64,000 nucleotides of DNA from Trichodelitschia bisporula (Eukaryota; Ascomycota; Dothideomycetes; Phaeotrichales; Phaeotrichaceae): contig ML996688.1 in the NCBI GenBank assembly GCA_010356995.1, positions 1,586,579-1,650,578 of the forward strand, given 5' to 3'. This document shows positions 7,238-55,407 of the stretch, piece by piece. The position numbers and the translations under genes are program-made. The notes beneath the pieces were generated by a model. It was not told the origin of the DNA, did not search any database, and saw only the letters and a program-made list of their open reading frames with translations. Each line of letters opens with the position of its first letter. The first letter of the stretch is position 1.

Positions 7238-8875
7238 ATGGCCCCCACCTTCTCCGGCAAATCCCCCGAATCCTACGCCACCGGCCTCCGCCGCAAAGAC
7301 TCCAAAAACGCCCTAAACACCTGCCACGGAACCACCTCTACGGGACGTGCCTGCCGCCGCGCCCTCGCCGGCGCCGGCAACCGACCGCAAGGCGCCTTCC
7401 TCGTCCCGGCTAACGACGACCCGGCCGTCTTCTACTGCTGGCAGCACAAGGACCAGGCCGAGCCCGTCGGCGCGGGCTCCGAAGTCTATCCGCTGGATGG
7501 TTGGGAGAGCATCGAGTCCACGTTTCGGCATTTAGGCCTTGATGATGGCCCCCTTGAGGAGGCGATGCGGAACGTCAGGCTCGGGAGCGTGATCGAGGAC
7601 GACTCGGAATCGGAAAGCGACGACGAGCCGATCCCCTCACGCCCGCACACCCCGAATCCCCACCCAGCAACCCCTTCCCCCGCCGCACGCACCCCCCGGA
7701 CCGAACCGAGCCAACAGCGGACCGAACCCCGGACCGAAAAACCCCGCCGCAAACCCGTCCCCTCCCCGCCCAACCCTCCCCGAGGCCGGCGCAAATCCAC
7801 CCCCTCCCCCCCAAAATCCCCCCTCCTCTCCCTCCTCACCGGCTGCTTCGGCTCCGCCCCGCCACCCCCGCGGAGCAAATCCCGGAACCCGCACCACCGC
7901 CGCCGGTCAAGCGCCCACCGCCCCTCCGAGCCGGAAAAGCACTTAAGTCCGCGCCCCGCGCCCGCGCCCGAGACCGAGAAACCCCTAACCCCGCCCTCGC
8001 GCTCGCGCCCGTCGCCGCGCGCTTCCCCGCGCGCCAGTCAGACCTCCGGCCTGCCCTCGGGCCGGAAGGCGAGTCGCCCGTCTAGCTCGAGGCATGACTC
8101 CGCGCACCCAAGCCCGGAGAGCACGCCCCCGCACTCAGCGCCCCGGCCTGCGGCGTTCAAGGCGCATACCAGCCCCAGCGCGAGTCCGCCGCATTTAAGG
8201 CCCGGGGGGGAGTGGGGAAGTCTCGCGCCAACCCACCCGTCCAACTCGCCGTCAACACCATCACGCCCACCCGCAGCACGCATTGTCACCGCCCCAGCCT
8301 CTACTCTCGAACCGCCGCCGCTGCCACCGAACGCGTCTCTCGGGGAGGTAGAGGTGTATGCGAAGCTGCGGAAGGTGATGGACGACCCGCCAACTGCGGC
8401 TGATGGACCGGGGTATATTTACGTATTCTACCACGCCGAAGACGGTATCAATGCGGAGATGCTTTCGCCGTATAACGCGCGGGTGGCGCCTAGGCGGGAG
8501 AGCAGCGGAGGCGGGGTGAAAAAAATGGCGTTGAAGGTGGGGCGGGCGACGAATGTGCATGCGCGGATGGGGCAGTGGAATCGGCAGTGTGGGGCGAAGG
8601 TTGCGTTGTGGAGGAGTTATCCCGCGGTTGAGGGGGGGGTGGGGATGAGGGTGGGTTGTGTTAAGAAGGTGGAGCGGTTGGTGCATTTGCACCTTGAGAT
8701 GTTGGGGAGGAGGGTGAGTAGGGTTTGTGGGTGTGGGACGGTGCATCAAGAGTGGTTTGAGGTTGAGGCGTCGAGGGAGGGGCTGGGGGAGGTGGAGGAG
8801 GTTATTCGTAGGTGGGTTGATTGGGCGGAGACGATGTATGGAGGGCGAGGGGGTAGAGGGGGGGTTGGTATGTAG
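7238..8875 (+). CDS. GIY-YIG / T5orf172-domain protein (Mug113 type)
   Basis: Single-exon gene for 545 residues. The N-terminal 110 residues carry a Cys/His pattern (TCHGTTSTGRACRR, then FYCWQHKDQ) that looks metal-binding. Residues about 130-360 are Pro/Ser/Arg-rich and probably disordered. The C-terminal 160 residues form the T5orf172 subclass of the GIY-YIG fold: GYIYVFYH, then LKVGRATNVHARMGQWNRQCG, then VERLVHLHLEMLGRR, and the conserved CGCGTVHQEWFEVE. The family includes fission yeast Mug113, up-regulated in meiosis, whose biochemical role is not established; the fold suggests a nucleic-acid nuclease. GC content rises and third positions are strongly C in the proline-rich middle, while the last third is G-rich. 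Family call is secure, function is not. Confidence 0.85.
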   Translation: MAPTFSGKSPESYATGLRRKDSKNALNTCHGTTSTGRACRRALAGAGNRPQGAFLVPANDDPAVFYCWQHKDQAEPVGAGSEVYPLDGWESIESTFRHLGLDDGPLEEAMRNVRLGSVIEDDSESESDDEPIPSRPHTPNPHPATPSPAARTPRTEPSQQRTEPRTEKPRRKPVPSPPNPPRGRRKSTPSPPKSPLLSLLTGCFGSAPPPPRSKSRNPHHRRRSSAHRPSEPEKHLSPRPAPAPETEKPLTPPSRSRPSPRASPRASQTSGLPSGRKASRPSSSRHDSAHPSPESTPPHSAPRPAAFKAHTSPSASPPHLRPGGEWGSLAPTHPSNSPSTPSRPPAARIVTAPASTLEPPPLPPNASLGEVEVYAKLRKVMDDPPTAADGPGYIYVFYHAEDGINAEMLSPYNARVAPRRESSGGGVKKMALKVGRATNVHARMGQWNRQCGAKVALWRSYPAVEGGVGMRVGCVKKVERLVHLHLEMLGRRVSRVCGCGTVHQEWFEVEASREGLGEVEEVIRRWVDWAETMYGGRGGRGGVGM

Positions 8876-10648: not shown

Positions 10649-11910
10649 TCATTCCCCGTACGGGTAAACCTCCTCTTTCACCCTCCCCACCTCCCGATAC
10701 CCCTCATCAATCAACCGCACCGCCTCATCCACCCCAAGCAACCTTCTTATAACATCCATCTCACTGTGCCCCCTATACCCGCGCATCCGATGACACCACC
10801 TCATCTTCCCCTCCCTGATCAAAAACTCCCCGCCGACCCAGAACGGATTCCCGGCGTTCCAGCGCAGGCGCTCTTCCGTCGCGCGCAGCTGCTTGATCTG
10901 TCCCTTTACCCAATCTCCCCCGGTCATACCCGCCATGTAGCGCGCGGTCCGGGGCCCGGGATTCAGAGTCCAGTTCATGCCGAGGAGTTTGTAGAGCCGC
11001 TTGGATGGGTCTGCGAAGATGGGGAATGGCGTGCCGGTGTGCGCGCGGTAGGCGCGGATGAGTTCCGGGGAGCCGAGGCCGATGATAGTTATTGACGTCG
11101 GCGTCGGGAGCGTGAAATACGTCTGCAAAGAAATAGTATTCGAGAGAGCCTTGAGGTAGTTCTGGCAAGCCTGGGTCGGGGTTAGTATATCACGTTGATA
11201 GTGTTGTGGAGGGGGGAGCCTACGCCGCAGTAAAAATGCCTCACAAAAATAATCAACTGTTGCTCCCCAATCGCATCATCCCCCTCATACAAGCTCCTAA
11301 ACTTCCTCTCATTCCCCTCGCTATCAAACAGCGGTATCTCGCCCGCCTCCGCGAGCGCGCGCGCACTCGGCAATGTATCACTATCCGCAATATCATCGCT
11401 CGTGTCGCTCCCGAACCCATCGAAATACGCATCGAGATCGAATTCAGAAGAATAGTGCGGCTCAAGCCCATACGAGCACTCGTCGTGCGCTTCACAGTCC
11501 CCGTGCGCGTCGGGATAGAAACGCGTGTCGAGTTCGTCGGACTCGTCGTCAGATGCGATGGCGAACTCGTGCTCCTCCTCGCGCCACGCGGAGGCGGTGC
11601 TCGTGCTCGGGCGGCGGTACCCGGAGATAGTAGTCGAGCTCGGCCTCCGCTTGTAGGCCGAGGAGTAATTCGTCGGGGCTGTGGAGTGGCTGTAATGGCT
11701 CGTCGTATCCGAGACCTGGGATTTGGCAGACGCTTTGGATGTGCTGTAGCTGGGCGTGTAGCTAGGCGTGTAGGACGAGCTGTGGAAGTAGGTCGAGACG
11801 CGGGCGTCGGTTGATATTGCGGTTCCGGGGGCGATGTTGCGCTCAAGCGGCCATGATATTTGAGGCCTGGGAGGGGGTGGTGTGGCGGCGCGGCGGCGGA
11901 AGATGGCCAT
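10649..11910 (-). CDS. AhpC/TSA-like thioredoxin-fold protein (AAED1/PRXL2 type) with long N-terminal extension
   Basis: Exons 11910-11224 and 11170-10649 flank a 53-base intron with a clear ACTAAC branch site, giving 402 residues. Splicing restores RHFYCGACQNYLK, the CxxC active-site segment at Cys228 and Cys231 of the AhpC-TSA_2 family, peroxiredoxin-like proteins presumed to reduce peroxides or disulfides. The rest of the domain follows: TSITIIGLGSPELIRAYRAHTG, PFPIFADPSKRLYKLLGM and the C-terminal GGDWVKGQIKQ region. The first 190 residues are Ser/Thr/Tyr-rich, with SYTPSYTPSY repeats and an acidic stretch, and look disordered; that extension is common in fungal members but long. The start MAIFRRR is used because further upstream residues read like leader sequence. 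Substrate unknown. Confidence 0.82.
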
Positions 11911-17840: not shown

Positions 17841-18733
17841 TGTGAAGGGTGGTGGTTCACTTGGAAGGCGTCAATTGCCCTTCTTCATCGTCTCCCTCGC
17901 AATGTTGCCTCCCCTACGCACATGTGGGGCACGGTTGATGTCCGGAGCCGGGGCTACCCGTTCCGGGCCAACCTTGCCTCAACTTCCCCAAAACTTCGGA
18001 GCCGTTGAGAAGCACTTGTCACGAAGCTCCATATTGTAGCTTCTCTACGATCATATGTGGCATTATATATGGCATTGGATGAGAAATATTCGCCATGCTG
18101 GCAATCGGTAAGAAGTTTCAAACGCGTGTAATGCCAATTGCCGAAAACCAGATCCGTCAACCTCCTTGGAAGCCGTGTTTGTTTATCGATGTATCCCCAA
18201 GTCGAAATTATTCCTTGGGAGACCTGAACAATAGCAGAGCCGTTGCCAAAACAGGTGCGAGCCCTACCTTCAATACCTTAAGCATTGCCATCGGGGGACT
18301 ACACCTCGCAGATCAAGATGCAGGCACACAGGCCGGAAGGAGCACACGAGGACTCAAGTCTTCGCCCGGATACGCTAAAACTCATGTTCGAGGATGAACA
18401 TCGACTTAAGGTGCCGATCCAAGGCTCTGATCTGAATCATGAAGTAATATATGTCGGTTGCCAGATCTAGCGACTCTTGATTCCGATCCGATCTCTACTC
18501 GTTTCAGATTGGTTGCTGGCCCACGCGGCGATCAATCAAGCAGTCTTCCAGAAGCCCATTTGTGTCAATGCATGATTTGGCATGAATGGTTCGTTTACGC
18601 TGTCACTCATCCATCGCTCCTACAATCTCCGGTGCTCTGGGAGTACGTCACAGCATATATCCCAGCAAGACCTGGTGTCCGGCTCTCTTCTTGGCTTCTC
18701 GGCCTGCAGTTCTCTTCATAGTCTCTCATTAAG
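17841..18733. other. Divergent intergenic region between plp1 and the esterase gene
   Basis: Promoters of two divergent genes. An ATATAT element is present before the esterase ATG. No additional gene was recognised. Confidence 0.55.
18655..18660 (+). promoter_or_regulatory. TATA-like element of the CE5 esterase gene
   Basis: ATATAT lies about 75 bases upstream of the esterase ATG, a normal fungal TATA distance. The function is inferred from position only. Confidence 0.4.
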
Positions 18734-30697: not shown

Positions 30698-30815
30698 ACA
30701 TACGGCCACAGGTCGAAGAGAACACCAGTCCCCGTCTGCTCACTGAAGTTAAGCTTCGAACCGGTTGACTAGTAGTTGCGTGGGTGACCAGCAGCGAATC
30801 CCAACTGCTGTATGT
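30698..30815 (+). rRNA. 5S ribosomal RNA
   Basis: About 118 bases that match the fungal 5S layout. The ends ACATACGGC and GCTGTATGT pair as helix I. GGTCGAAG pairs with CTTCGAACC (one bulged A) as helix II. The segment TAGTAGTTGCGTGGGTGACC and GCGAATCCCAACTG carry the conserved helix IV/V core (canonical form TAGTAGTTGGGTGGGTGACCACCAGCGAATCCC). A TTTTT run follows directly and would stop Pol III. The internal control region lies in the middle of the gene. Several stem positions differ from the common ascomycete sequence, but their partners have changed with them, so the gene looks functional. Isolated 5S genes scattered among protein genes are normal for Pezizomycotina. Confidence 0.9.
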
Positions 30816-30819
30816 TTTT
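30815..30819 (+). terminator. Pol III terminator of the 5S gene
   Basis: A run of five T follows the helix I 3' strand of the 5S gene, the standard RNA polymerase III stop. Confidence 0.75.
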
Positions 30820-41350: not shown

Positions 41351-43790
41351 ATGTATTCAAGCTCTCACGCCTCAATGCCTCCGCCACAGCAGCGACAGGT
41401 CGCGCCTGAAACCTTTTTATTAGACCAGGAAGCTCAGCGGAGTTTGCCCCAGGAGGCCGTCATCGCTTTGCGCCAGGTTGAAAATCGTGAGTTGCTTTGC
41501 CACCCAGTTGTTGGATGCCTCGCGCTTCCAACATCAACATCCAACAACAACAACTAACCCCACCACAGTCAAGTACTTTCTCATCTCTGCGCCCGTGGAC
41601 TGGAGTCCCGAGCAATGCATCCGTCGCTTTCTTCTGCCGACTGGCGAATACGTTTCCTGCGTGCTATGGTTCGTGATCTATGTCGCGCTTCTTTTTTGGC
41701 TTGCAATTAACCAAGCTTCAGGAATAATCTCTTTCATATCTCTGGTACCGACATCGTGCGATGCCTGTCCTTTCGCTTCCAGGCCTTTGGCCGCCCAGTC
41801 AAGAACTCGAAGAAATTCGAGGAGGGCATTTTCTCGGATCTGCGCAACCTGAAGTCAGGCACCGACGCGTCTCTTGAGGAGCCGAAGAGCCCGTTCTTGG
41901 ACTTCTTGTACAAGAACAACTGCATTCGCACCCAGAAGAAGCAAAAGGTCTTCTATTGGTACAGCGTGCCGCATGATCGCCTGTTCCTTGATGCCCTGGA
42001 GCGCGACCTGAAGAGGGAGAAGATGGGCCAGGAGGCGACTACTATGGCCGTCAGCGAGCCCGCACTCTCGTTCGAATTCGACTCATCGCAATCACTGTTC
42101 GAGCAGCTCACCAAGGCCCAGCAGACCAACTCGTCGTCTTTCACTTCTAACGTGCAGAGCTACACGCACGCATCCCCGGTCGAGCAGATGGCCCCGCCGC
42201 AAATGATGGCCCAGCCTATGGCACCAGTTGTCGTTGACGATTCGCTGAACCAGATCGGGAACTACCCGCAGATGCAACAAATTCCCACGTCGATTCCTGG
42301 CGTCTCCAACGCTGTGGTGGCGAAGAGCCGCGAACGCGATTTTGGCCAGCCGCAATTTGACCGCAATGGCATCCCTTTGGGACAGCTGCACCAGCGCGCG
42401 AACTCGATGCCCGCTTTCATGGAATGCTCGCCTGCGCCGTCACTGGCTCTGTCGCACTATGATGACTACAGCAACCCGCGCATGTCTTTTGAGCCGCTCA
42501 CTCCTCCTCAACATGCTTTCAGCCTGGGCCCTGAGCCGTCGTACATCCCCAATGAAGACACTGGCCTCTATTCGGCGATTCCCGACCTCAACGTGTCTGC
42601 GACCTTCAACCCGATGATGCAACTGCCGCCTTCCAGCTTTGGTCCGCAATTTTCCGTGACTCGCACCTTCCCTCCTCCCAATGTCTACTCCGTCATTGAA
42701 GGGTCTCCCACCTACAAGCAGCGCCGGAGACGATCTTCCATCACCACCAACGTGGGGGTTGTCACTGCCAGCGGAGCCGTTCAGGGTGTGCAGCGCACCA
42801 GCGATCTCCGGAGATCAATGTCCAGCTCTGTTGTCCCTGTTCAGGAGGTTGACGAGAACGAGCACGACTCACCGCAGAGCTCGAATAACTACGCGCCTGT
42901 GCAGAAGACTGAGCCCTTCCCCGATCTGTCCAGGCACGGAACGCCTCTGGCGACTGTTGAGGACAGCCCCATCCAGCAGCCGATGACGATCATGCCGCAG
43001 GACGAGCTTTCGCAATTTACCAACGGTGATTTTGCAGAGGCTCCTCTGCAGCATAGCGCTTTGGCTCGCACCGCTGGTGGCGTATTTCGGCGCGCGCGCA
43101 GCGCTACGATGATGGAGCTGGGTCCCTACCCGCAGAAGTCACATTCGTGCCCGATTCCTACTTGCGGAAGGTTGTTCAAGAGATTAGAGCACTTGAAGAG
43201 GTAAGCGCTTGTTTCCGATCCCCAAGATGCCTTGTGGAGATTAGATTGTTTCACAATTGCATCTCAGCCAAAAATAGAAGCTGACTCCCGGCGCTTAGGC
43301 ACGTGCGCACGCACACTCAGGAACGTCCATACGTCTGCCAACTCTGCAGCAAGGCCTTTTCGCGCTCTGACAACCTCGCACAGTATGTTTCACGTGTACG
43401 CGCCGTCACTTGGATTGTCGCTAATCATTTCTTAGACATAAGCGCACGCATGAGCAGCAGCAGAATGGCGAGCAAGTCAACTTTAGCGAAGAGGATTTTG
43501 AGAACGAGGATGACCATATCCCCGCTCTGGACGAAACGTCGCCGGGCTCCGAAGAACACTCGTACCTCGGCAATGGCATGCCGCCTTCGACTTCGGACCT
43601 GTCGGCGTCGTTGAACTCCCTCTCGGGTGGTAACATGTCCGAGCACCCGTACCTCCACGGAAACAACTCCACTCCCGACATGTCTACGGGAATGGGCAGC
43701 ATGAATACAGGCACGAGCAACATGAACGGCCCGAGCATGAACGGCACTAGCATGGGACCCCCTCCCATGGTCGCGGCACATAACTACTAG
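41351..43790 (+). CDS. ste12: Transcription factor Ste12 (SteA) with C2H2 zinc fingers
   Basis: Target of the pheromone/invasion MAP kinase cascade; controls mating and, in pathogens, host penetration. Exons 41351-41486, 41569-41668, 41722-43200, 43299-43382 and 43436-43790 give 717 residues. The STE homeodomain-like DNA-binding region spans about residues 25-150: [67 protein letters not shown], and [26 protein letters not shown] long Pro/Ser/Gln-rich middle follows. Two C2H2 fingers lie at about 570-625 ([19 protein letters not shown] and [21 protein letters not shown]). The tail is Met/Asn/Gly-rich. Exon 4 (84 bases) encodes most of the finger region and has matching phase at both ends. Intron 2 uses the weak donor GTTCGT. 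Confidence 0.96.
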
Positions 43791-45372
43791 GCCTCATCTC
43801 GTCTATCCTAATATCTCCCGGGTTTAGCCTTGGTCTTTTTGGCGCAAAAGGCATGGACGCACCCTGTGAGCCGGAGTCTTGATTCTTATCATGAACGACC
43901 GATAGATTTCTCTGTGTTTATATTGTCATCTACTTTTTGGTTTGATGTGCTTGCATCCGCTTTCGGGGCAAGAGGTCTTTTTGCGGAGTTTGGGAGAAAT
44001 CTGCTGGCGCGTAGACATGACTTGGACGATCCTTTGGTGTGTGCAGCTCACATGCTCCCTGCAACCTTTTCTTTTATCCACACTGCTTCGGTGTTTTGGC
44101 GGTGCTTGGTCGGTCGAAGGGGGTCTGGGGTCGGGGGTGCGGATAGGAACTGGGTGAAAAAGCGCTCGGATGTTTGTCTTGCTCTGCTCCGGTGCAGGTG
44201 GATGGGGCGGGCTGGACGGAAGGTGTTCGGTTACAAGATGGGATCGTGGTTCCACGGATGATATCCCGTGATGGGGCGATGGGTGTACCGTACTTTTGCT
44301 GCATGGCCCGCATGGCGGTGTTTGCCTTGTGCCCGGTGAAGGGCGATGTGGGCTGTATTTGTTTCTCTGCGCTGGCTTCTTGTCATGTAGACCGTGTGTG
44401 GCCTGTAACATAGATAACTATGTCTTGATGATGTTGGGAATACGTGATGGTGCTTGATGCTCGGGACGACAGCCTTTCCCCCCCCCCCCCGAGGGGGGGT
44501 TTTTAGGCAAGCCTGCCGTGCCTGCCTGCTTCGATGTAGTACTGGACTGGACGTCCTCTACCGGAAGGAAAGGTAGGTTCTTGACGTGTTCCGCGGTTGT
44601 TCTACTGACGACGTGATCTAGCATGCTGCACAGCACCTTCCTTCTGGAAAACCGCGTTCGGGAAAGCGCCATCCTGGCCCTCCGGAATCAGAGACTAGAA
44701 CTAGACGCCAAGTTCCCCGCACGACACTTCATCCGTGACCTCACCCCCACCATCCAACATCGCCCCGGCCTGTCGTCCGTCATCCCCAGAATCCCTTCAT
44801 GTTGCTCTACGCAACGCTCTCTGCGCAACTACCGGCTTGTTAAGAGACCTTTCCCTGTCTGATCGACACTACTGCGAATGACGAATGCCATTTGGTAACG
44901 CAGTCGAAGGATTTCCGGAAGGCCTTTCAGCACATGCGCTTCCGCCGCGCGCTGCTATACTCAGACGTCCCCTTCTTTGGGTGCAGCCCCACCATCGACA
45001 AGGACACTGCGATAGCGGAGAGAAGAATATGGGATACAGGAACGAGAGCTTATCTGACATGCGGACGTCGATTGATCGCCCAGAGATCTCACTTGCATTC
45101 AATCCTATCCCCAAGAAGGGGATCCTATACGAGGGCGAAAAGGTTCCAGAGCATAGAACTAGTCCGGCCTTTTGCGCTTTTCTTGGGGTTTGGATGAGAT
45201 GTGAGAGAGATCTCGGGTGATCAGTGGACGTCCTCATGACTGTTAACCTCTCGTTTTGGAACTCCCTGTTTTTCTTTACCGCTGTCTTGGTGTTCTTATC
45301 GGTGGTGGCGCTGCATTCTAAGAATGGGACGCCACGAGCTCTGGCTCTCGCTGCCGGCGTGTCTTCGCTTCA
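43791..45372. other. Intergenic between ste12 and the inverted repeat
   Basis: 3' region of ste12 followed by sequence without a supported gene. It includes a C13-GA-G7 homopolymer hairpin followed by five T at 44478-44504. A reading frame at about 44623-44862 has no recognised relatives. Confidence 0.45.
44478..44504. repeat. Homopolymer hairpin C13-GA-G7-T5
   Basis: Thirteen C, GA, seven G and five T in a row. Seven G-C pairs can close over a minimal loop, and the T run follows as in a factor-free terminator. In a fungal nuclear genome this is more likely slippage-prone simple sequence. Confidence 0.6.
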
Positions 45373-45585
45373 TCTGGCGAGCGCTCGAACGCGGCGCAGC
45401 CCACCTCTACCGCGACTGCCCAGAGATCCAGGCAATAGTCCAGGAGGGGATCGCCCATCTGGCCACTGAGAATTCAAAGTTTGGATTATCGGTGGGCAGA
45501 TACGCAATTCCGTCCTGGATTATCGCCTGGATCTCTGGGCAGTCGTGGTAGAGGTGAGCTATGCCGCATCTGAGCGCTCGCCAGA
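45373..45585. repeat. Inverted repeat, arms of about 107 bases, no spacer
   Basis: The left arm (45373-45479) and the reverse complement of the right arm (45480-45585) agree at all but about 18 positions (roughly 83% identity), mostly transitions. The arms meet with no spacer, so a transcript would fold into one long hairpin. An ATG-led frame of 75 codons at 45324-45551 crosses both arms. The peptide read from the left arm (AHLYRDCPEIQAIVQEGIA) is also read, with changes, from the right arm on the opposite strand (AHLYHDCPEIQAIIQDGIA). This suggests that a coding piece was duplicated head-to-head. The source gene is not in the window in clear form; a faint similarity to the CTPTA-x-x-EIE segment of the downstream family is possible but unproven. 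Confidence 0.8.
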
Positions 45586-45732
45586 ATCAGCGTTGCAAAC
45601 TGCTCTATCAAGACGGCTCATGACTTGAAACACACAGCGGTCTTATCTCTCGCGGCCTGCGTGTTCTCCGCTTTGTCTTCTGCTGTAGGCGAACTCACCT
45701 CACTTCTACTCTGGAAGCTCCGTTGATACAAA

Positions 45733-45738
45733 TATAAA
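45733..45738 (+). promoter_or_regulatory. TATA box of family copy A
   Basis: TATAAA about 75 bases upstream of the ATG at 45811. Its position argues for that start rather than any reading further upstream. Confidence 0.45.
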
Positions 45739-45810
45739 CGAGTGGTGCTTTGGGTTCTGGCATACAACAGCGTCACGCCTCTGCAAATATCGTTCCGGAA
45801 ACCAAAAAGA

Positions 45811-46500
45811 ATGGACGAGAGACACTTATATATGGCTGAACTGACCGAATCGTTTTCCAGGTTACAGTTAGGCCAAGACTTAAAGCCGATGCTTACGCGG
45901 GAACGAGCCAAGGAACTATACTACATGTTCATCTTCCAACAGTTCCCCGAAAGAAGGCGCTACGGCCGCGATAATGACGGGCCTCTTGTGGATATGTGGA
46001 CAGAATGGGCCTTGAGCATGCGGTCCCAACCCGAGGCCCAGGACCTCTGGCGCTATATCACCGGTGAGGCTCCCAAGCTGCTCGACTTGAATTATGCGAA
46101 CCACTGGCTCCTTGACCGGGCGCTCAAAACGTGGTTGCAGAGACAATTCTCCCTGGTGGACTTGGCCGAGATTTACGAGTATGAAGCTCAGGTTCAAAAT
46201 GAGGCTCTGTTTCAAACTGGGCTCAGGCCTGAAAAAGAGTCGGCGCCGCATTTGTGGAAGATGATGGAGCTCTGGGCGACGCGGAAGATAGCCAAAACGG
46301 CCCTGAGTGCACAAGGGGTTGGTATTCCTGTGGTCTTGGGCTGGAAGATTCATGGGTGGCCCTTGGGCTCGACTGCGGGTTCTTGCGCCGCCTTTCAAGC
46401 GGAAGCATACCTTGGTAATCTCTTGATGCAAATATGCGATTTCCCTCTCCAAGTAACTGTCCAGCTGATGGACGGCGGCAGCCTCATCGTCGGAAAGTAG
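45811..46500 (+). CDS. Tandem family copy A, unknown function
   Basis: Single-exon frame for 229 residues; family not recognised. The first member of a five-member same-strand array. Shared core: DMWTEWALSMRSQ, DLWRYITGEAP, WLLDRALKTWLQ, LAEIYEYEAQV, and SAPHLWKMMELWATRK. Relative to copy E the spacing of these blocks is the same, but residue identity is low, so the duplication is old or the family evolves fast. The CTPTA block is degenerate (FSLVDLAEI). After the core comes a 55-residue tail (GVGIPVVLGWKIHGW and beyond) found in no other copy; it may be genuine or may follow an unrecognised intron. All blocks are predicted helical and no signal peptide or membrane helix is seen. Start chosen at MDERHLYM because a TATA box stands 75 bases before it. 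Confidence 0.65.
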   Translation: MDERHLYMAELTESFSRLQLGQDLKPMLTRERAKELYYMFIFQQFPERRRYGRDNDGPLVDMWTEWALSMRSQPEAQDLWRYITGEAPKLLDLNYANHWLLDRALKTWLQRQFSLVDLAEIYEYEAQVQNEALFQTGLRPEKESAPHLWKMMELWATRKIAKTALSAQGVGIPVVLGWKIHGWPLGSTAGSCAAFQAEAYLGNLLMQICDFPLQVTVQLMDGGSLIVGK

Positions 46501-46758
46501 GTCAGCTGTTGCTCTCTGAATGACCCTTCATTCAAGGAAGTCCTGAATGCCATGCTCTTGATTGGAGAGCGGGTATCAGCACATAATTGAGTGGGTGGAT
46601 GAACTGCTGTGTAACGGCATCCGCCGATGAGCTGACTCGCTCGTCTTCTTTAAAAAGGCGAGGTATCTTGCTCGTTGACTTTCAGTTTCACTGAAGCACC
46701 TTCTCAAGTTTTGAATGGCTGGTATATATCTCTCCTGTTATGATGGCATGTTAGCTAA

Positions 46759-47022
46759 AGGCGCGCAGTCAACAACATCCGGTACTTGCACTGCGGCCAT
46801 CGTGTGGATCGGAAACCCAAGGCCTTCCTGGTAAAGCACTGCACCACTGCCGCTATGGTCGAAATTGAACGCTTTGTGAAGGGTATTGAGAATCCATTGT
46901 CTGAAGATAAGAACTTCTGGGTTGGTTCGACGCCGCGCTGGTGGGCGATGGCAGAGCGTTGGGCGGCAGATAACAAGTCCAAGGCTGTCGGCCTTGCCGA
47001 GGAAATGGGGTACATGGATTGA
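46759..47022 (+). pseudogene. Tandem family copy B, C-terminal half only
   Basis: An open frame with no in-frame ATG ahead of the conserved part. It reads VDRKPKAFLVKHCTTAAMVEI, ERFVKGIENP, WVGSTPRWWAMAERWAADNKSKA, matching the second half of copies D and E (LDRxLKxWLAxxCTPTAxxEIE and HWWKMxELWA). The front half (WPVW to WEYL) is absent. It is therefore a truncated copy, or the last exon of a gene whose beginning I cannot define. Distance to copy A is about 260 bases. The conserved Trp residues are kept, so decay is recent or the piece is still used. Confidence 0.5.
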
Positions 47023-47444
47023 GCTTCTGGAAGTAGTGTTCATGTCTTGCCTTAGCAGTCTTGAGAACGCAACCCTCCGATAGCCGAGGAAGACCCTGAA
47101 TTGATATCGCTTTGAATTTCCGCAAACCATGTGCCCATCGCAAACCCGCAGCGGATGAATGGAACCCTTCCTCTTCCCCGTGAAAGAATCCAGACCGGGC
47201 CATCTTGCTAGTCGGATCTTGTGTCCAGCAACCTTTTCCCCTAGCGCTCTGGTAGGTGCGTCTTCCAACATCCAATATTTATAGTTGCCATATGGGTTCA
47301 CTGGTCATCATTCTCCACGATCATCCAACCCTCTCCTCAGCCTCCACTCCTCAAACCCACCTTCAACCCTCTCCTCTGCCTCCACTCCTCAAACCCACAC
47401 ACCGCAACCACCTCCTCCCCATCCACACCACCCCCGCCCCCAAA
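47023..47444. other. Region between family copies B and C
   Basis: Holds the leader of copy C, which is pyrimidine-rich with two near-repeats of CTCCTCAAACCCAC (about 47346 and 47385), and a TATTTATA element at 47276-47283. No other gene seen. Confidence 0.5.
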
Positions 47445-47858
47445 ATGGTCTTCCTATCCGACCTCCAAATGGACATGATCCACGCCGCCCTCTACTCAGG
47501 ACAACAAATCGCCCTCCCCGGCGTGCTCTACTCCCCCACCGAAGGCAACCTGTCAACCTCCTCCCCGCGCTACCAAGACTGGCCCGCCTGGTCCGCCTTC
47601 GTGCGCAACCTAGTCTCCGCGCTCGACATGGGCAAATCTCTGCCCACTAGCGCAGAGCAGAGCGGGTCCGCATACCACGACGCCAACCGCACCCTCAAGG
47701 AGATCATGGCGCAGAACTGCTCGCCCACCGCGGTGGCTGAGATCGAAGCTTTCTCCGCGAGGGCGGCGGAGGAGGTCGAGGTTGTTGGCGGCGCGACGCA
47801 TTTTTGGAAGTGTGCTGAGCTGTGGGCTGCGAGTCGGGAGGGGGAGGTTACGGCTTAG
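47445..47858 (+). CDS. Tandem family copy C, unknown function
   Basis: Single-exon frame for 137 residues, the minimal complete member. It starts MVFLSDLQMDMIHAALYSGQ, followed by IALPGVLYSPTEG (copy E has IALPGILASPNEA), DWPAWSAFVRNLVSALDM, ANRTLKEIMAQNCSPTAVAEIEAF, and ATHFWKCAELWAASREGE at the end. The N-terminal block and the start position agree with copies D and E, which supports the ATG at 47445. Third codon positions are strongly C in the first half, unlike the neighbours. The upstream leader is CT-rich with repeats of CTCCTCAAACCCA, and a TATTTATA element sits about 165 bases ahead. Small, helical, no export signal. Function unknown. Confidence 0.65.
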   Translation: MVFLSDLQMDMIHAALYSGQQIALPGVLYSPTEGNLSTSSPRYQDWPAWSAFVRNLVSALDMGKSLPTSAEQSGSAYHDANRTLKEIMAQNCSPTAVAEIEAFSARAAEEVEVVGGATHFWKCAELWAASREGEVTA

Positions 47859-48598
47859 GGGTTACGCTGAGGGTTAAGGTTGAAGGGTCTGGATTGAATT
47901 TGTGGGGAACGGGGGGGGGGTAATGGAAGGGTCCACGTGGTGGGGAATTGTTCTTTTCGGTGTTCGCTTTCGGCAGGCGTGGTTACGAGTATCCGTGGGG
48001 ATCGAGTTTGATTGCCTCGGAGTTTTTCGTCTTGCGTGTTGTATTTAGTAGGATAATGTAATGACTCTGGCGGATATGTATGAATATCGTAGCATGAATG
48101 GTGAATTTGCTCCCCGCTTCCACTCGGGACTGTCCTGTGGCACGAGAAGCATCAGTGATGCCCGATTCGGCAATCTGGAGAACAGCAGGTGTATCGATTA
48201 GCTTGCCCAAGTGACTGGACAACGCATTTGAGTTCGAACTGTCTGTTATCCGTATCTGCCTTGCTGGATGTTCCAAGGTCAACTTGCGTTAAATTCAGCC
48301 AATTCGCATCGTGCTTGCACCTCCATCTCAGCGGTAGAAACCTTGCGACGGACCGAAAAGGCTGAAGCCCCCTTGTCACTTGTGGCTTGGCAGCCTGTTA
48401 TGCTTTACGACAATCACCTTCCATGTTGAGGGGAGCTCTGTTGGGCTCTACAGACCATTTTCTCCAACCCTCCAGGTGCGGGGTCGTCTTAGGCAGGCGC
48501 TGGGTATAAGTATCGTGCTGCTGCTGCCTCTGGATCATTAATCACTCACCCTCCAAAGTCACCGTCAAATTCCAGAAATCCGACTCGACGCCATTGAG
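47859..48598. other. Region between family copies C and D
   Basis: Contains a run of ten G at 47911-47920 and a TATAAG element at 48505-48510 that would serve copy D. No other gene recognised. Confidence 0.5.
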
Positions 48599-49012
48599 AT
48601 GTTTACATACACCCACCAAGAGATCGACGAAGTCTTCCCCTTGAAAGGATTCGAGCCGATCGTCGTTCTCTAATCACCAACTGAGAATGTGGATGAGCTT
48701 CCGCTACTCAAGCGTCCGGACGCACAGTACGTCGAGCGGCCGGTGTGGTCAGTTGTCACGCACTACACTCTCGATATGGTCGACCTGTGGGACTACATTG
48801 ACCACGTAAATTCCCCACTGTGTGTGGACGAGCGTCTTCCGTGCCTTCTTGATCGCGGCATCAAGCTTTGGCTGGCATCCAACTGCACTCCGACTGCCAT
48901 AGTTGAAATCGAAGACTACGCCCAGGATGTATCGTCACGGCGACCAGACGTCAAGAAAACTTGATCGGGTCCGCTTAACACTGGTGGAGGATGTCGAACT
49001 TGTGGGCGAAAT
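48599..49012 (+). pseudogene. Tandem family copy D, broken
   Basis: A full-length but disabled member. The N-terminal block, the VWSVVTHYTLDMVDLWDY block, the LLDRGIKLWLASNCTPTAIVEIEDYA block and the final HWWRM-x-x-LWA block are all present in the right order and spacing, but about three disabling changes interrupt the frame. It is closest to copy E in the central block (KLWLASxCTPTA is shared). The promoter-like TATAAG lies 90 bases upstream, as in copy E. The core is still easily aligned, so inactivation is probably recent compared with the age of the array. Confidence 0.7.
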
Positions 49013-49442
49013 GTATTACTTCTACGCCCAAAGATGTTGTCCCTAAGAAAAGTCTCAAGAGAAAGGCGTCGGGGATGGGGCCAGAAGAAGATATGCATCG
49101 TGCAGGACTGAAGCGAAGGTGACTCCAGATTTATGTAATGCGGGACGAAGAAGCGTTTTGGTTGCTTTCATTCGTGGCTTGCTTTTGTTCTTTGTCTTCT
49201 TCACGGATGATTTGTGGATTTCGAACCTTCCCATGAGTGCGCGCGGAGGATGTGAATGTGACGGCTGTATCTTTCTCTCTAGTCTAATGAAGAGATGTCG
49301 TTAGAAACTGAGATGGTTTGGTCGAGCCGACGTCGCATATGCTTATATAAGCTGTCGATCCATGTGCTCCTTCCATCATGCAGAACAGCAGTCCAACATC
49401 AACTCTCATCTCAAACTGCAACCATCTTGCGAATTCCTCAAA
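49013..49442. other. Region between family copies D and E
   Basis: Promoter and leader of copy E, with TATATAA at 49344-49350. Nothing else recognised. Confidence 0.5.
49344..49350 (+). promoter_or_regulatory. TATA box of family copy E
   Basis: TATATAA, 93 bases upstream of the ATG at 49443. Confidence 0.5.
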
Positions 49443-50090
49443 ATGGGCCTTTCAACAGCCCAACTTGAGAACAGATTCGTTCTTCTGGACAGAATCGCTC
49501 TACCCGGCATTCTCGCCTCCCCCAACGAGGCTACGGGCAGGCCTCAGCTCAAGGTCCACGAAGGCCTTCAACCTCTGGACTGGCCGGTTTGGTCGGCATA
49601 TGTCCGTTACGAACTCGACGTTTTCAACATGTGGGAGTATCTGTCGACTATAAAAAAGGACGAGGTGGCTTTGTTCCAGGGTTCAAATAAGGAACGACAG
49701 TTGGATCGCAGGCTGAAGTTATGGCTGGCTTCCAAGTGTACCCCTACCGCTATGCTTGAGATTGAAGGATTTGCGGAGCAGGTACCGGAAAATCGTAACT
49801 CCTTCACCAGCAAGGTCAAAGCCGGATGGATCGGTTCGGCGCCGCATTGGTGGAAGATGGCGGAGTTGTGGGCTGAGAGTCACAAGGCTGAGATTCAGGC
49901 TGAGAGCGTGAAAGAGGAGAAGAGCGGCCCGAAGGGCGTGGAAGGGGAGAAGGGAAGACTGAAGGAAGATAGTACAGGAGAACGGACCGAGGAAAGTGTA
50001 GGAGACGATACGAAGGGGAGTTCGAAGGTAAAATCACCAGAGACTTTGAGGGCTGAAGCGTGGAGAGCGCGGTACGGGCTCCCGTATTGA
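49443..50090 (+). CDS. Tandem family copy E, unknown function, charged tail
   Basis: Single-exon frame for 215 residues, the best preserved member. Blocks in order: MGLSTAQLENRFVLLDR, IALPGILASPNEA, DWPVWSAYVRYELDVFNMWE, QLDRRLKLWLASKCTPTAML, EIEGFAEQVPE, GWIGSAPHWWKMAELWAES. The last 65 residues are a Lys/Glu-rich hydrophilic tail (EKSGPKGVEGEKGRLKEDS and beyond) ending in ETLRAEAWRARYGLPY, absent from the other copies. The core is all-helical by pattern, with many invariant Trp. No signal peptide, membrane helix or catalytic motif is seen. I do not recognise the family. The layout W-x-x-W, L-W-x-Y-L, LDR and a later helix pair vaguely recalls the N-terminal helical domain of Ty1/copia Gag proteins; this is a guess, not an assignment. 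Confidence 0.72.
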   Translation: MGLSTAQLENRFVLLDRIALPGILASPNEATGRPQLKVHEGLQPLDWPVWSAYVRYELDVFNMWEYLSTIKKDEVALFQGSNKERQLDRRLKLWLASKCTPTAMLEIEGFAEQVPENRNSFTSKVKAGWIGSAPHWWKMAELWAESHKAEIQAESVKEEKSGPKGVEGEKGRLKEDSTGERTEESVGDDTKGSSKVKSPETLRAEAWRARYGLPY

Positions 50091-51057
50091 AGTCCACTTG
50101 GTATAAGGCGAAGAGGGATATCCAAATTGATCTTGGGCTTTGTATTTAGCTTGGAGTACGCTCGTTGGCTCGATACACTGAGATGAATGTCATAATCAGC
50201 GAGAAAGCATCACATGCTGCTACGCCCCGGATATGTGCCAGAACCGTGGGACACAGTTTCTACCGGTTGCACAGAGTAACGGGAACTTAGCTAAGACACG
50301 TGCAGTGGCAACAAGTACAGACTGAAAGCATTGTAAAAGACGAAGGACAGAAGAGAGGGGAGAGTGGCAGGGCCGCTCGTATCCAAATACACTTGTTGTC
50401 CTGTCCCTGGGTTTCCTTCCATTACTCCCCACAGCCACTTCCCGGTTTAGGATACTCCTTCCAAGAGTACGGCTGCTCCTTTCCTGAGGACACATCAGAG
50501 AGCTTCGAGGATGATATAGTTAATCGCCTACTCGAAGCTTTCGTCTCTAACTAAGTGATCTTCGAGCCCCTGACCTGTCCGATTCTATATGTTGGAGCCA
50601 AGCGTTCACAGTTCAGTTCATCAGCGGCATCAAGTCCAGAAACGAATACCAAGCGAGCAGAGCAGCTTGCATGCTATTCAAGGCCTAGGTACAGTCGCAT
50701 CTTCCACTCCTAGGCGCCAGTTTCGAAAACTCCCCACCTCAGCTCTAAGCAATGTGCCCGAAATTATTGTAAAACACATGCCGCGATCCACTGTGCAGGA
50801 GACATAATCAAGGACAAGGAGGAAATAATAAACTGAAAAAACTGAAAAAACCCGCAAAGACCGACCACACGCCGTGAAAAGATTTCTGCAACCCATTCCG
50901 AATTTCGCCCATACTCGCCACGCCCCCGTTATGATCTTTTAGTTTCCCATGTCATAGAGTACCCCATCCCATTTCGCGAAGTTCATGATTCACACCGGAA
51001 GATGTTTACTTGGCTATGCGGGCAAATGTCAGCGTCATTCTTGATATCAGCGAATAA
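50091..51057. other. Intergenic between the tandem array and the SNF2 gene
   Basis: Convergent 3' regions. No sixth copy of the family was found by reading all frames. Short frames have no motif. Confidence 0.5.
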
Positions 51058-54000
51058 CTAACCTTGAGCAAGTGGAGTTCCAGCGCTGGACACAGGAGCC
51101 GTAGACTGGCCATCGCGAGTAGAAGACCCCCCGTCATCGAAGCCTTGGAGTTCAGGGTAATTCTCCGTCTCCTCGCGGAGGCGCTTCAGCGTTATTTGCT
51201 CCGGAACGTTAGCACAAGATCATACATGAGATTTTTAGCATTTACCTCAATCAGGTTAGCATCCTTGTAGAGAATACTACCGTCCTCGTTGAAGGTACGA
51301 CAGTTATTGCACAGGAGGCCAATGTCAGTCCGGAACTGATAGAGGTTCTGGTACTCCTTCTTGTTGATCTTCTTCTGGATCTGCTTCATGCAAATCGGGT
51401 TCGTGATAATGACGTAATACTCAGGGTAATCATTCTTGTCAGGAAGATCCAAGAAAGGATCAATGATACCACGGTTCGCAAGATCGGGATCCGTAGACTC
51501 CTCCTCCAGATCCAGAAGCGCATCATAGACAGCGTTCAGAATCTTCTGAAGGATTGCACGGTTCGCCGGCGTGAGAGTATCCTTAGCATTGCCTGGACGA
51601 CCACGCTTCTTCGGGGGCGGAGCAACGTCAGCATCAAGCCCCGCCTCCTCAGCCTTGCGCTTCTCGGCCTTGGGCTTGCGGCCCCGCTTCTTAGGCATAG
51701 GCGACTCAGAGCTGTCGCGCGACGGACGCGGCGATTCCGCGATGATCTGGTCGGTGCGCGTTTTCTTGTCGCGGTTCTTCTCGCGGCGGCCCTGCTTGGC
51801 CTCCTTGCGGGCAATGGCCTCCTCGATGGTATCTTCGTCGTTGTCGACAGCATCGAGCCACTGCTCCTCAGTGAGGCCGTCGTCGTAACGAACGCGCGTC
51901 CGCTCGCGAGCACCACGACCGACGGGCTCTTCCACCTCTTCCACGACAGGGTTGTCCTCCATCAAGTAGAGCTCTGGCAATTCTTCGTCGCAGAGCAGGC
52001 GCGGGTACTTCTTGCCAGGTCCATACTTGGCGTTCGTGATGCGATCTTGATCCATCTGCTGGAAGAGCTTGAGTTCGTCCTCGGAACGCATCATGATCAC
52101 GTTGAGATCATCATCGTCCTGCTCTTCCTGTTCCAGGGTCTCCGCCGCTTCAGCAGACTCCAACATGACCCTCAACATGGCATCACGCTCTTCGTTTGTC
52201 GACTTGTTATCGAATTTACCGGCCTGAATAACCTTGCCATCCATGTCGAGCTTGAAGTTCGCGCGCTCGAGAATCTTCTCTTCAACTGAGTTGGTGGTGA
52301 TCAAGCGCAGAATGCGGACTTCGTTCTTCTGACCGATACGATGTGCACGATCCTGGGCCTGCAAATCTTGATGAGGATTCCAGTCGGAGTCGTAAATGAT
52401 GACAGTATCCGCAGTTTGAAGATTGAGACCCAAGCCACCAGCACGAGTGGAGAGCAAGAAGCAGAAGTACTCCGAGTTCGGAGCATTGAACAGCCTGAGC
52501 AGCTCAGAACGATCGTCTGCTTTCGTCGACCCATCCAGCCGAAGGTACTTGATGTTACGAAGGCGCAAGAAATCTTCCATGATGTTCATAATCTGCGTCA
52601 TCTGGAAGAACATGAGGACACGATGGTTGGTGGCCTGGAACTTGGGAAGGATCCGGTCAAGAAGTTCGAACTTGCCGGAGGTGCGCCACAAGAGGTCGTT
52701 GGTGCTCCGGGTGGGGTTCATCTGATCTTCGACCTCTTCGAACACGAAGGGATGGTTGCAAAGCTTGCGTAACTGCATAAGCATGTTGCTCAACCCACGC
52801 AGACCGGTCTTGCCTCCCTTGCCGTCGCTGACGGTGAGGCGGTTGTGGTTGACCAGCTGTTTGTACAGTCTAGCCTGCAGAGCAGAGAAGCTGCACTTGA
52901 TAACGCGCTCAGTCTTGTCAGGAAGATCCTTCTCGACATCCCTCTTGAGGCGACGGAGCAAGAATGGCCGAAGAACCTTATGAAGACGACGAATGACGAG
53001 CAACTGCTCTTCTTCAGTGAGCTCCATCTTGTCTTGTCCACCGGTATTGGCAAAGGGCGTGTTGAACCACTCGTCAAAAGACTTGACGGACTTGAAGATG
53101 TTCGGGAGAACGAAATTGAGAAGCGCCCACAGCTCAGGCAGGTTGTTCTGCAGCGGCGTACCAGTCAAGATAAGACGGTAGCGAGTGTTGTAGTACTGCG
53201 TGATGGTGCTGCTCAACTTGGAGCCGGCATTCTTCATGCGGTGACCTTCATCGACGATCATGTGGACCCACTTGATCTTGCTGAGAATCGGGCGATCCTT
53301 GATGACGAATTCATACGTTGTAAGTAGGACCTGGAACGAACCATAGCGAATCTGGTTCTGCTGCTGCTTGCGCTGGTTCGGCGGGCCCTTGTAAACAATC
53401 TTCTGCACGCTCGGCGCCCACTTATCAAACTCACTATTCCAGTTCGTCAAGGTGCTGAGAGGAACAATGACCAGGAAGGGGCCATGTTCCTGCTTCTCCG
53501 CAATGAGATAGGTGATTAAGCTGATGGTCTGAATAGTCTTTCCGAGACCCATTTCGTCGGCCAAGATACCATTCAGGTTGTTGTTGTACAGCGAAATCAT
53601 CCACTGAAGACCCTTGAGCTGGTATTCCTTGAGAGTACCGCCAACGAGATTGTCAGACTGCTTATAGATTTCCTCCTTTTTGCGATGCGCGACTTCGTAG
53701 TAGTCAACGCGACGAGCGCGACGCTCTTCGTCATCTTCATCCTCATCGTAGGAATCGCTCTCGTCGGAGGACTCGTCAACCGTATCCCTACCACCGTACC
53801 GCTTGACAGCGCTGCGCTGTTGCTCGCGAACGGAGGCCGCAAGTTGGTTCAAGAAGCCATCGGTTTGCTTGAGCAAGTGGGAGATACGCGTATCCTTTGC
53901 TTGACCGAGCAGCTTCAGGTAGGTCTCTTCATCGTTGGCCTTCAAAGCCTGAAGACGCTGCCTAGCCGTGCGCTCGACACGCTTCTGCTCTTCCTTCTCG

Positions 54001-55407
54001 AGATGGTTGTGCTGAGCCATGGCAAGGCGACCAAGCTTTTGAGCCCGCTGTTGTTTAGCATGGGCCTCTTGACGAATCTCCTCTCCGTGTTTGATGACAG
54101 AGTTGAGGAAGTCGGTATGTTTCTTCTTCTCCTGAGACTCCCGAGCATCGCGCTGCTGCTTCTCCAGTTTCTCAGTGACGCGTGCTTCACGGAACGACAT
54201 CTTTTTCACGCGACGGTATTGCGCCCGGTTCGATGTGATAGCCAAGTTGTCCGCGTTGAGCATTTCGCGGCTCAGGTGTTGGCGCAACTGGCGCTGCTTC
54301 TGAAGGAGGCAGAGCTGCTTGTATTCAATCAGGGCCTTACGCTTGATCGAGTCATCCGGGTCCTTGAAGAGTATGCTACGGGCGTTCCAGGTGGCGATAT
54401 TGGCATGTGTCTGTTCGAGCTCCTGCTTCCGCGCCATGATACGATTGTACGCAATCATCTCGCGTTCTTCCTGCATCCGCTTGACATCGATTCCTTGAGG
54501 AATTATGCTCGGAATCTGTGGGCGAAGGATGCGAAGAGCATGATCACTGTAGCCTATTTCGCGCCTCACGTGCGAGTAGGGGTCGGTGAAGGACTTGAGA
54601 TATTCATGTGCAGCAGTACGCTTCGATGGTTCGGAGGAGGGCTCCACGCTCGCCGATTCCTTCACAGGTGGAGCATTCTCGATGCCATGTTCCTCAGTAG
54701 CCAGGACTTGCTTCGTCATGCTCGCCTGTTTGGCCTGAGAGAAAGTGTGCAGTGTTTGCTGGATTGACGCAGGCAACGGCAAGTTCCTAGTGAGTTGGCG
54801 AAACGCACCCAACTGGATTTTAAACAATGCAAGCTGTTCCTTGGTGAATGAGGAAGCAGGAGCCTTTTGACCAGAGGGGGCCATCTTGCTACGAGGAGAA
54901 GGGCCCGCAGCAACGGATGGAGCAGCCGAGCCGTTTGTCGCGGCTGTAGGCAGGTTCTCGGATCCAGACGCGGATGGCATTACAGTGCCGTTGGTCAGAG
55001 TTTGCGGAGCAACACCGTTCGCTTGATGCTGTTCTGGCAGCTGGACCTGCAACTGAGCCTGTTGCATGTTATCCTGCTGCTGACCTTGCTGGTGTGCAAG
55101 AGCTTGCTGCTGCTGCTGTTGCATCATCTTCTGCTTCTGCCACTGATTTTGCTGGTGGACAGCTTGGAGGAGGTTGCGGGCCTTGATGAATTCCGGGTCA
55201 TCTTCACGGACATTCTGAGTCTTCATCTGTTGGTACTTCTAGATATGGATGTCAGTCACTGGATACGAGACAGCGGGTGGTGGAAGGGAAAGATATGTGG
55301 GGGAGATATACAATGTATGTTTGTTTGACCATGTCCCTGGTGAGATTTGGTGGAATCACGCCTGAAGCCTGCGCCTGGATGTGGCCAGGCTGCTGAAGAG
55401 TCGCCAT
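51058..55407 (-). CDS. SNF2-class chromatin remodelling ATPase with bromodomain (Sth1/Snf2/Brahma type)
   Basis: Catalytic subunit of a SWI/SNF or RSC complex; slides and ejects nucleosomes. Exons 55407-55312, 55238-51246 and 51198-51058 give 1409 residues. Order: N-terminal segment with a Gln-rich tract (QKMMQQQQQQALAHQQ), HSA helix (SIKRKALIEYKQLCLLQKQR onwards, about 330-400), basic coiled region, ATPase lobe 1 with Walker A (DEMGLGKTIQTISL) and DEGH box (VDEGHRMKN), lobe 2 (LLSTRAGGLGLNLQTADTV, then QDRAHRIGQ), SnAC region, two AT-hook-like motifs (KKRGRKPK and KKRGRPG), and a bromodomain (YPEYYVIITNP, LCNNCRTFNEDGS). One ancestral Sth1-like gene is usual in filamentous fungi. The last codons read AQG-stop; a further intron from 51062 to 51014 would instead end AQAK. 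Confidence 0.95.

What the first reader, a model, noticed from the sequence alone, without database searches (positions are those of the whole stretch)
45811..50090. Tandem array of five members of an unrecognised small protein family
Between ste12 and the SNF2 gene, five same-strand units share ordered blocks: LPGxLxSPxE, W-x-x-W followed by LD-x-x-x-MW-x-YL, LDR-x-LK-x-WLA, CTPTA-x-x-EIE-x-FA, and HWWKM-x-ELWA. Copies A, C and E are open, B keeps only the second half, D is broken. Tails differ completely between copies (55 residues in A, a charged 65-residue tail in E, none in C). Several copies have a TATA-like element 75-165 bases ahead of the ATG, so each unit seems to have been duplicated with its promoter. 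Divergence with strict retention of Trp residues looks like a birth-and-death family. This is the strongest candidate for an undescribed system in the window.
Basis: partly seen in the sequence, partly recalled or inferred. Interest (0 to 1): 0.78.

Follow-up and report, generated by a model that had tools for sequence, protein, structure and literature searches.

The report
Tandem family of Gag-like fungal genes
Next to two ordinary genes, a filamentous fungus carries five old tandem copies of a small helical protein, three with open reading frames, whose first half resembles the shell protein of Copia-type jumping genes, so this may be a transposon shell gene that the fungus took over and multiplied.

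Summary
Five same-strand units between ste12 and an SNF2-type gene encode one homologous domain. All 10 pairwise scores beat 1000 shuffles each, and a profile scan of the window finds no sixth copy. A, C and E are open; B has only the second half; D has two stops and a frame change. Codon positions 1 and 2 are more conserved than position 3 in 10 of 10 pairs, so the copies diverged as proteins. Two details fail: upstream flanks show no similarity, so promoter co-duplication is not shown, and only three Trp positions are kept wherever covered.

No copy reaches a Pfam cut-off. A Copia-Gag relation, noted beforehand, gained partial support: copy A and family consensus peptides (also with A, D or E left out) match PF13961 (DUF4219, found with Copia-Gag domains in AT4G00980) in one register, E 0.18 to 4.9e-5; 0 of 26 control peptides do. 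But scores stay below the cut-off, C, D and E alone give nothing, the second half matches no Gag family, and structure models are too weak.

Best reading: a birth-and-death family of small intracellular helical proteins probably derived from a Copia Gag (0.5). Main rival: an unrelated orphan family. No fungal genomes were searchable.

The parts
45811..46500 (+). Unit A, open frame of 229 aa; core about residues 60-160, unique 73-aa tail; the only copy whose own WxxW segment matches PF13961
45994..46077 (+). WxxW...LWxYI segment of unit A matching PF13961 (DUF4219), profile positions 6-26 of 27, E 0.0093, 16.1 bits (cut-off 27)
   Evidence: 0 of 10 shuffles of this segment match any Pfam family
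46786..47022 (+). Unit B, second half of the domain only; stop-to-stop frame 46759-47019; truncated relic
47445..47858 (+). Unit C, open frame of 137 aa, ends 9 residues after the ELWA motif
48599..49119 (+). Unit D, broken: TAA at 48671-48673, open piece 48674-48961 ended by TGA 48962-48964, last block in another frame with TAA at 48976-48978
49443..50090 (+). Unit E, open frame of 215 aa with a 71-aa tail rich in charged residues
   Evidence: (last 63 residues: 13 K/R, 14 D/E)
46240..46277 (+). Last conserved block (HWWKMxELWA) in A; further copies start at 46927, 47790, 48970 and 49836, the only direct repeat found in all five units (63-87% identical to the A copy)
   Evidence: family D1

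Best explanation
A tandem birth-and-death family of host genes for a small intracellular, all-helical domain that most likely descends from the N-terminal capsid part of a Ty1/Copia-type Gag, kept without nucleocapsid, protease or polymerase. Shown: homology of five copies, protein-level constraint during divergence, two decayed members. Supported but not proven: a Gag-like first half (WxxW, then LWxYL); intracellular location (hydropathy only). Inferred: the domain works by self-association through its Trp/Leu-rich helices. The likeliest role is interference with, or reuse of, capsid-type assembly, for instance co-assembling with the Gag of resident Copia elements and spoiling their particles, as the element-encoded p22 does in Ty1; divergent tails would then set partners. 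Confidence is for the Gag-derived family; the interference step alone I put at about 0.15.
For: A Copia-Gag relation (naming Retrotran_gag_2/UBN2, not DUF4219) was written down before the first DUF4219 hit. PF13961 then matched copy A: 98-aa core E 0.18 (second to DUF4855 at 0.05), 43 aa 0.05, 28 aa 0.0093. The profile consensus of the family matched it at 0.034 (104 aa, the only family listed), 0.0078 (65 aa) and 0.0011 (30 aa). Leave-one-out consensuses matched: without A 0.016 (30 aa) and 0.11 (101 aa), without E 4.9e-5, without D 0.0015. All 10 matching queries lie on profile positions 4-26. Controls: 0 of 10 shuffles of A's segment, 0 of 6 Trp-fixed shuffles of the consensus, 0 of 10 other window segments with similar Trp spacing. 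DUF4219 occurs with UBN2_2 (Copia Gag) and a CCHC knuckle in AT4G00980 (passage of PMC4759884). Ty1/Copia Gag domain A has an invariant Trp and the conserved Gag domains overlap predicted helices in Ty1 (passages of PMC4599808); here the second W of WxxW is kept in 4 of 4 copies that cover it, and both AlphaFold2 models contain helices only. Codon-position bias in 10 of 10 pairs and dN/dS of E-C indicate purifying selection.
Against: Every DUF4219 score is below the curated cut-off of 27 bits (best native 16.1, best consensus 23.4). Of 16 native queries covering the segment only 3 matched, all trimmed pieces of A; full-length A, and C, D and E in any form, did not. A consensus scores better than real sequences by its nature, and no consensus of an unrelated alignment was run as control. 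The families named beforehand (Retrotran_gag_2/UBN2) were never hit. Unrelated families reached E 0.015-0.66 in the same kind of scan, and 0.0014 for one control segment, which may be a real AhpC/TSA gene. The consensus second half hit only DUF7939 at 0.043. Between EIExF and HWWKM the family is longer than I recall for Copia Gag. Models have pLDDT 48.8 and 59.8, and fold searches found nothing at E <= 0.001. No CCHC knuckle in A, C or E. YN00 for C-B shows no constraint. [quoted passage not shown] No direct comparison with a fungal Copia Gag was possible.
Confidence: 0.5

Rival explanations
1. A lineage-specific orphan family of small helical proteins, unrelated to Gag; the WxxW...LWxYL half resembles DUF4219 by convergence of two Trp-bearing amphipathic helices. 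It would act as an intracellular protein-binding module diversified by tandem duplication.
For: C, D and E alone match no Gag family; second halves match none; all DUF4219 scores are under the cut-off; no fold match; unrelated families also reached E 0.015-0.66.
Against: Leave-one-out consensuses all fall on the same single family in the same register, against 0 of 26 control peptides; a Copia-Gag relation had been noted beforehand.
Confidence: 0.33
2. Dead debris: five remnants of Gag genes left by successive Copia insertions at one spot, not host genes.
For: Gag-like first half; D is broken and B truncated; Copia elements are known from filamentous ascomycetes (PMC5445492, title and passages).
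Against: All five units lie on one strand and hold only this one domain; no Copia RT motif in the window with up to 2 mismatches; 10 flanking ORFs scanned, of the 42 listed, lack transposon domains at E <= 0.1; no direct repeat longer than 66 nt at 44000-51200, and that one is coding; A and E are open over 229 and 215 codons and codon positions show constraint; RIP indices are near those of the whole window.
Confidence: 0.12
3. Secreted or membrane proteins (for example effectors) expanded in tandem.
For: Small, fast-diverging, tandem genes often are (general knowledge).
Against: No strongly hydrophobic N terminus (largest 10-residue mean hydropathy in the first 34 residues 0.43, 1.24 and 1.58 for A, C, E), no membrane-like stretch (19-residue maxima 1.16, 0.84, 0.91), only 1-2 Cys. 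No dedicated signal-peptide predictor was run.
Confidence: 0.03

Closest known systems
DUF4219 (Pfam PF13961), in my recollection the N-terminal segment of Copia Gag proteins
   Same: WxxW then about 14 residues then LWxYL/I; one register in copy A and in all consensus queries that cover it
   Different: Scores 12-23 bits against a cut-off of 27; three of the four copies covering the segment do not match alone
Ty1/Copia Gag with UBN2 domain (PF14223/PF14227)
   Same: Order of helical blocks (from memory) and a conserved Trp in the first block (PMC4599808 passages)
   Different: No UBN2 match, no zinc knuckle in A, C, E, no protease, RT, integrase or LTR found nearby
Domesticated Gag genes (ARC, dArc1, PNMA, SIRH/RTL)
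   Same: Would be a capsid-part gene kept by the host without pol; post-domestication duplication is also known there (PMC11011659 passages)
   Different: Those are Metaviridae-derived; [quoted passage not shown] Searches listed no tandem Copia-type family in a fungus
Ty1 p22 restriction factor
   Same: A Gag piece without pol that poisons particle assembly (abstract start and passages of PMC4599808)
   Different: [quoted passage not shown] here the resemblance is to an N-terminal segment and the genes are not in a recognisable element

Membership tests
DUF4219 (PF13961) | Score above the curated cut-off (27 bits) | tested here: not met
   Best native 16.1 bits, best consensus 23.4 bits
DUF4219 (PF13961) | Consistent register and specificity against shuffled and other peptides | tested here: met
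   All 10 matching queries (3 from A, 7 consensus) lie on profile positions 4-26; 0 of 26 controls. But 13 of 16 native queries covering the segment did not match
Ty1/Copia Gag | Invariant Trp of domain A | tested here: inconclusive
   Second W of WxxW in 4 of 4 copies covering it, but equivalence to Ty1 W184 rests on the DUF4219 register, not on a direct alignment
Ty1/Copia Gag | UBN2 / Retrotran_gag_2 domain | tested here: not met
   No match at E <= 10 for full copies, cores or second halves; HMMER filters drop most matches above about 0.1
Ty1/Copia Gag | Capsid-type helical fold | tested here: inconclusive
   Helical models but pLDDT 48.8 and 59.8; no fold hit at E <= 0.001
Ty1/Copia Gag | CCHC zinc knuckle | tested here: not met
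   No CCHC-like pattern in A, C, E
Copia element (intact or dead) | LTRs and pol next to gag | tested here: not met
   RT motif 0 matches in the window, no TE domains in 10 flanking ORFs, no long direct repeats at 44000-51200
Birth-and-death gene family | Tandem paralogues with decayed members | tested here: met
Birth-and-death gene family | Copy turnover between species | not testable with these tools
   No fungal genomes in the collections; window genome not held

The most novel reading that the evidence does not exclude
A fungal host has domesticated the capsid N-terminal part of a Copia Gag and expanded it in tandem as an intracellular restriction system: the copies co-assemble with and poison Gag particles of resident Copia elements, and their birth and death tracks an arms race with those elements.
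Probability: 0.15. Interest if true: 0.75.

Novelty: new variant of a known kind. Interest (0 to 1): 0.42.

Why it matters
The domesticated Gag genes that I know of come mainly from Ty3-type elements or retroviruses in animals; a survey of the human genome found none of Pseudoviridae (Copia) type (PMC11011659, passage). A Copia-type Gag turned into a tandem, still diversifying host family in a fungus would be a separate origin of the same trick and would give a haploid, knock-out-friendly system to test whether captured Gag restrains transposons. If the Gag link fails, it remains a local orphan family of modest interest.

Tried and rejected
Relatives elsewhere: no own genome is held. These collections hold no fungal genomes, so the negatives say little. 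PDB by sequence: nothing convincing; the low E-values come from repetitive proteins named Cake that sum 3-bit matches and were rejected. NCBIfam and PHROGs: best E 0.068 and 0.053, taken as noise. PDB and BFVD fold searches: nothing at E <= 0.001. Attempts to fetch Copia elements for a direct Gag comparison, by recalled RT and integrase motifs, gave 0 and one contig, L001, whose listed ORFs did not look like a Copia element by eye. RIP as the cause of D's decay: indices near the window's. Introns that could rescue D: judged by eye only, none convincing. A sixth copy at 18443-18718: E 2.3 in the profile scan, no DUF4219 match, rejected. tRNA genes as a Copia insertion target: none found, with a bacterial-code setting.
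Full report
Setting. The window is 56% G+C and looks like a gene-rich stretch of a filamentous ascomycete (assignment from memory). The array lies between a gene with the STE domain (PF02200; ORF 41756-43204, coding appears by eye to continue past introns to a stop near 43790) and an SNF2-type gene with helicase, bromodomain, HSA, SnAC and QLQ domains on the other strand (51192-55226). No whole genome is held for the window, and no collection at hand contains fungal genomes, so the family could be studied only within the window.

Observation. Five + strand units share one domain. Local alignment scores of 10 of 10 pairs exceed all 1000 shuffles, and an all-filters-off profile scan of 1579 frames finds these five, D's last piece at E 0.051, and then nothing better than E 0.47. 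A, C and E have ATG-to-stop frames of 229, 137 and 215 codons. B has only the second half. D has a TAA at 48671, its open piece ends at a TGA at 48962, and its last block reads on in another frame behind a further TAA at 48976. A and E would not stay open by chance (3.8e-5 and 3.2e-5); B and C could at the 2-3% level, so for these two the homology, not the openness, is the evidence.

Constraint. In 10 of 10 pairwise codon alignments identity at positions 1 and 2 exceeds that at position 3 (for example E-C 0.60, 0.59, 0.46; E-D 0.54, 0.60, 0.32), and codon-usage scores are positive in the reading frame and below zero in the other five frames for the A core, B, C, D's open piece and the E core; the E tail and D's last piece score below zero even in frame. 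For E-C dN/dS is 0.57/1.30 by NG86 and 0.56/1.94 by YN00. By NG86 two pairs (E-D, E-A) could not be computed for saturation, two more (C-A, D-A) have dS above 2.5, and all eight computed pairs have dN below dS. YN00 ran for two pairs only, and the second, C-B over 54 codons, gave 0.91/0.89, that is no constraint. Together this reads as moderate purifying selection, best shown for C and E. RIP indices are near the window's.

The N-terminal LPGxLxSPxE is complete only in C and E. Trp retention is strict at three positions only. Tails measure 73 (A), 71 (E) and 9 (C) residues. Upstream flanks of A, C, D and E do not align (0 of 6 pairs stand out from 200 shuffles; of 10 downstream pairs, C-E and B-E slightly do, 3 and 5 of 200 shuffles reaching the score). 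TATA-like strings are present at -78 to -165, but nothing shows that promoters were copied with the genes.

What the domain is. No copy matches a Pfam family above its cut-off. The block order - WxxW, about 14 residues, LWxYL, a charged helix, a helix with EIExF, then HWWKMxELW - made me note Copia-type Gag (Retrotran_gag_2/UBN2) as lead hypothesis. A later Pfam scan of trimmed cores put copy A on PF13961 DUF4219 (E 0.18, behind DUF4855 at 0.05), sharpened to 0.0093 with 28 residues. The profile consensus of the family matches the same family at 0.0011 (30 aa), 0.0078 (65 aa) and 0.034 (104 aa). Leaving out A, E or D in turn gives 0.016, 4.9e-5 and 0.0015 for the 30-residue stretch, and 0.11 for the 101-residue query without A. 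Controls: 0 of 10 shuffles of A's segment, 0 of 6 Trp-fixed shuffles of the consensus and 0 of 10 window segments with similar Trp spacing, taken from 74 such segments, match DUF4219. One of those last ten matched a different family, AhpC/TSA, at E 0.0014; it may be a real gene, but it also shows what such a score is worth alone. DUF4219 occurs together with UBN2_2 (Gag of Copia type) and a CCHC knuckle in the Arabidopsis protein AT4G00980 (passage of PMC4759884), and a study of Ty1 Gag describes an invariant Trp in Gag domain A of Ty1/Copia and predicted helices overlapping the conserved domains (passages of PMC4599808).

Limits of that identification. Of 16 native queries that cover the segment, 3 matched, all trimmed pieces of A; full-length A and every form of C, D and E did not. 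All scores are under the cut-off, the families noted beforehand were never hit, the second half matches no Gag family (its consensus hits only DUF7939 at 0.043), and scans of this kind threw up unrelated families at E 0.015 to 0.66. Consensus queries score better than real sequences by their nature, and no consensus of an unrelated alignment was run. Two AlphaFold2 models built from the five copies contain helices only but are weak (mean pLDDT 48.8 and 59.8), and Foldseek finds nothing significant in PDB (both models) or BFVD (first model). I could not obtain a fungal Copia Gag for direct comparison. I therefore do not file the family as a member of any Gag family; I say that it probably derives from one.

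Not a recognisable element. No Copia RT motif within two mismatches in the window, no transposon domains in 10 flanking ORFs scanned of the 42 listed, no LTR-like repeats at 44000-51200, no zinc knuckle in A, C or E, and five copies of one domain on one strand.

Mechanism. A, C and E lack signal-like or membrane-like segments (hydropathy only), so they should act inside the cell. Given a Gag-like helical core and variable tails, the most economical mechanism is self-association or association with related Gag through the core, with tails giving partners. The precedent for an anti-transposon role is the Ty1 p22 protein, a piece of Gag that interferes with Ty1 particle assembly and maturation; its authors liken it to the Gag-derived restriction factors Fv1 and enJS56A1 (PMC4599808, abstract and passages). 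That step is inference and I give it about 0.15. That a Copia capsid can be put to host use is reported for Drosophila Copia (PMC11835246, start of the abstract and passages).

In print. Searches (0 papers; 1; 2; 2; 11; 1; 2), and the 10 of 876 listed by 26, showed no paper that by title or start of abstract describes a domesticated Copia-type Gag family in a filamentous fungus or a gene array beside ste12. Of these I looked at passages of PMC3441728, PMC13269885 and PMC11011659, which do not describe one either; the last reports no Pseudoviridae-type capsid sequence in the human genome. The library is open-access only, so this is weak evidence of novelty.

Noticed in passing
window 45366-45592: Large inverted repeat between ste12 and unit A: two 113-nt arms, 81% complementary, 1 nt between them.
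   Followed up: no
window 30698-30816: 5S rRNA gene on the + strand, Rfam RF00001, 88.4 bits.
   Followed up: no
window 47326-47398: Tandem repeat of 38 nt (1.9 copies, 97% matches) in the presumed 5' leader of unit C.
   Followed up: no
window 18443-18721: Frame with a WxxW...LWEYV stretch upstream of a cutinase-domain ORF (PF01083, 18734-19408); profile E 2.3 and no DUF4219 match, probably chance.
   Followed up: partly
window 7238-8875: ORF for a protein with a T5orf172/MUG113 domain (GIY-YIG-like, recalled) and a long proline/serine-rich region.
   Followed up: no
window 10652-11275: Minus-strand frame with a sub-threshold AhpC/TSA_2 match (E 0.0014 for a 30-residue piece).
   Followed up: no
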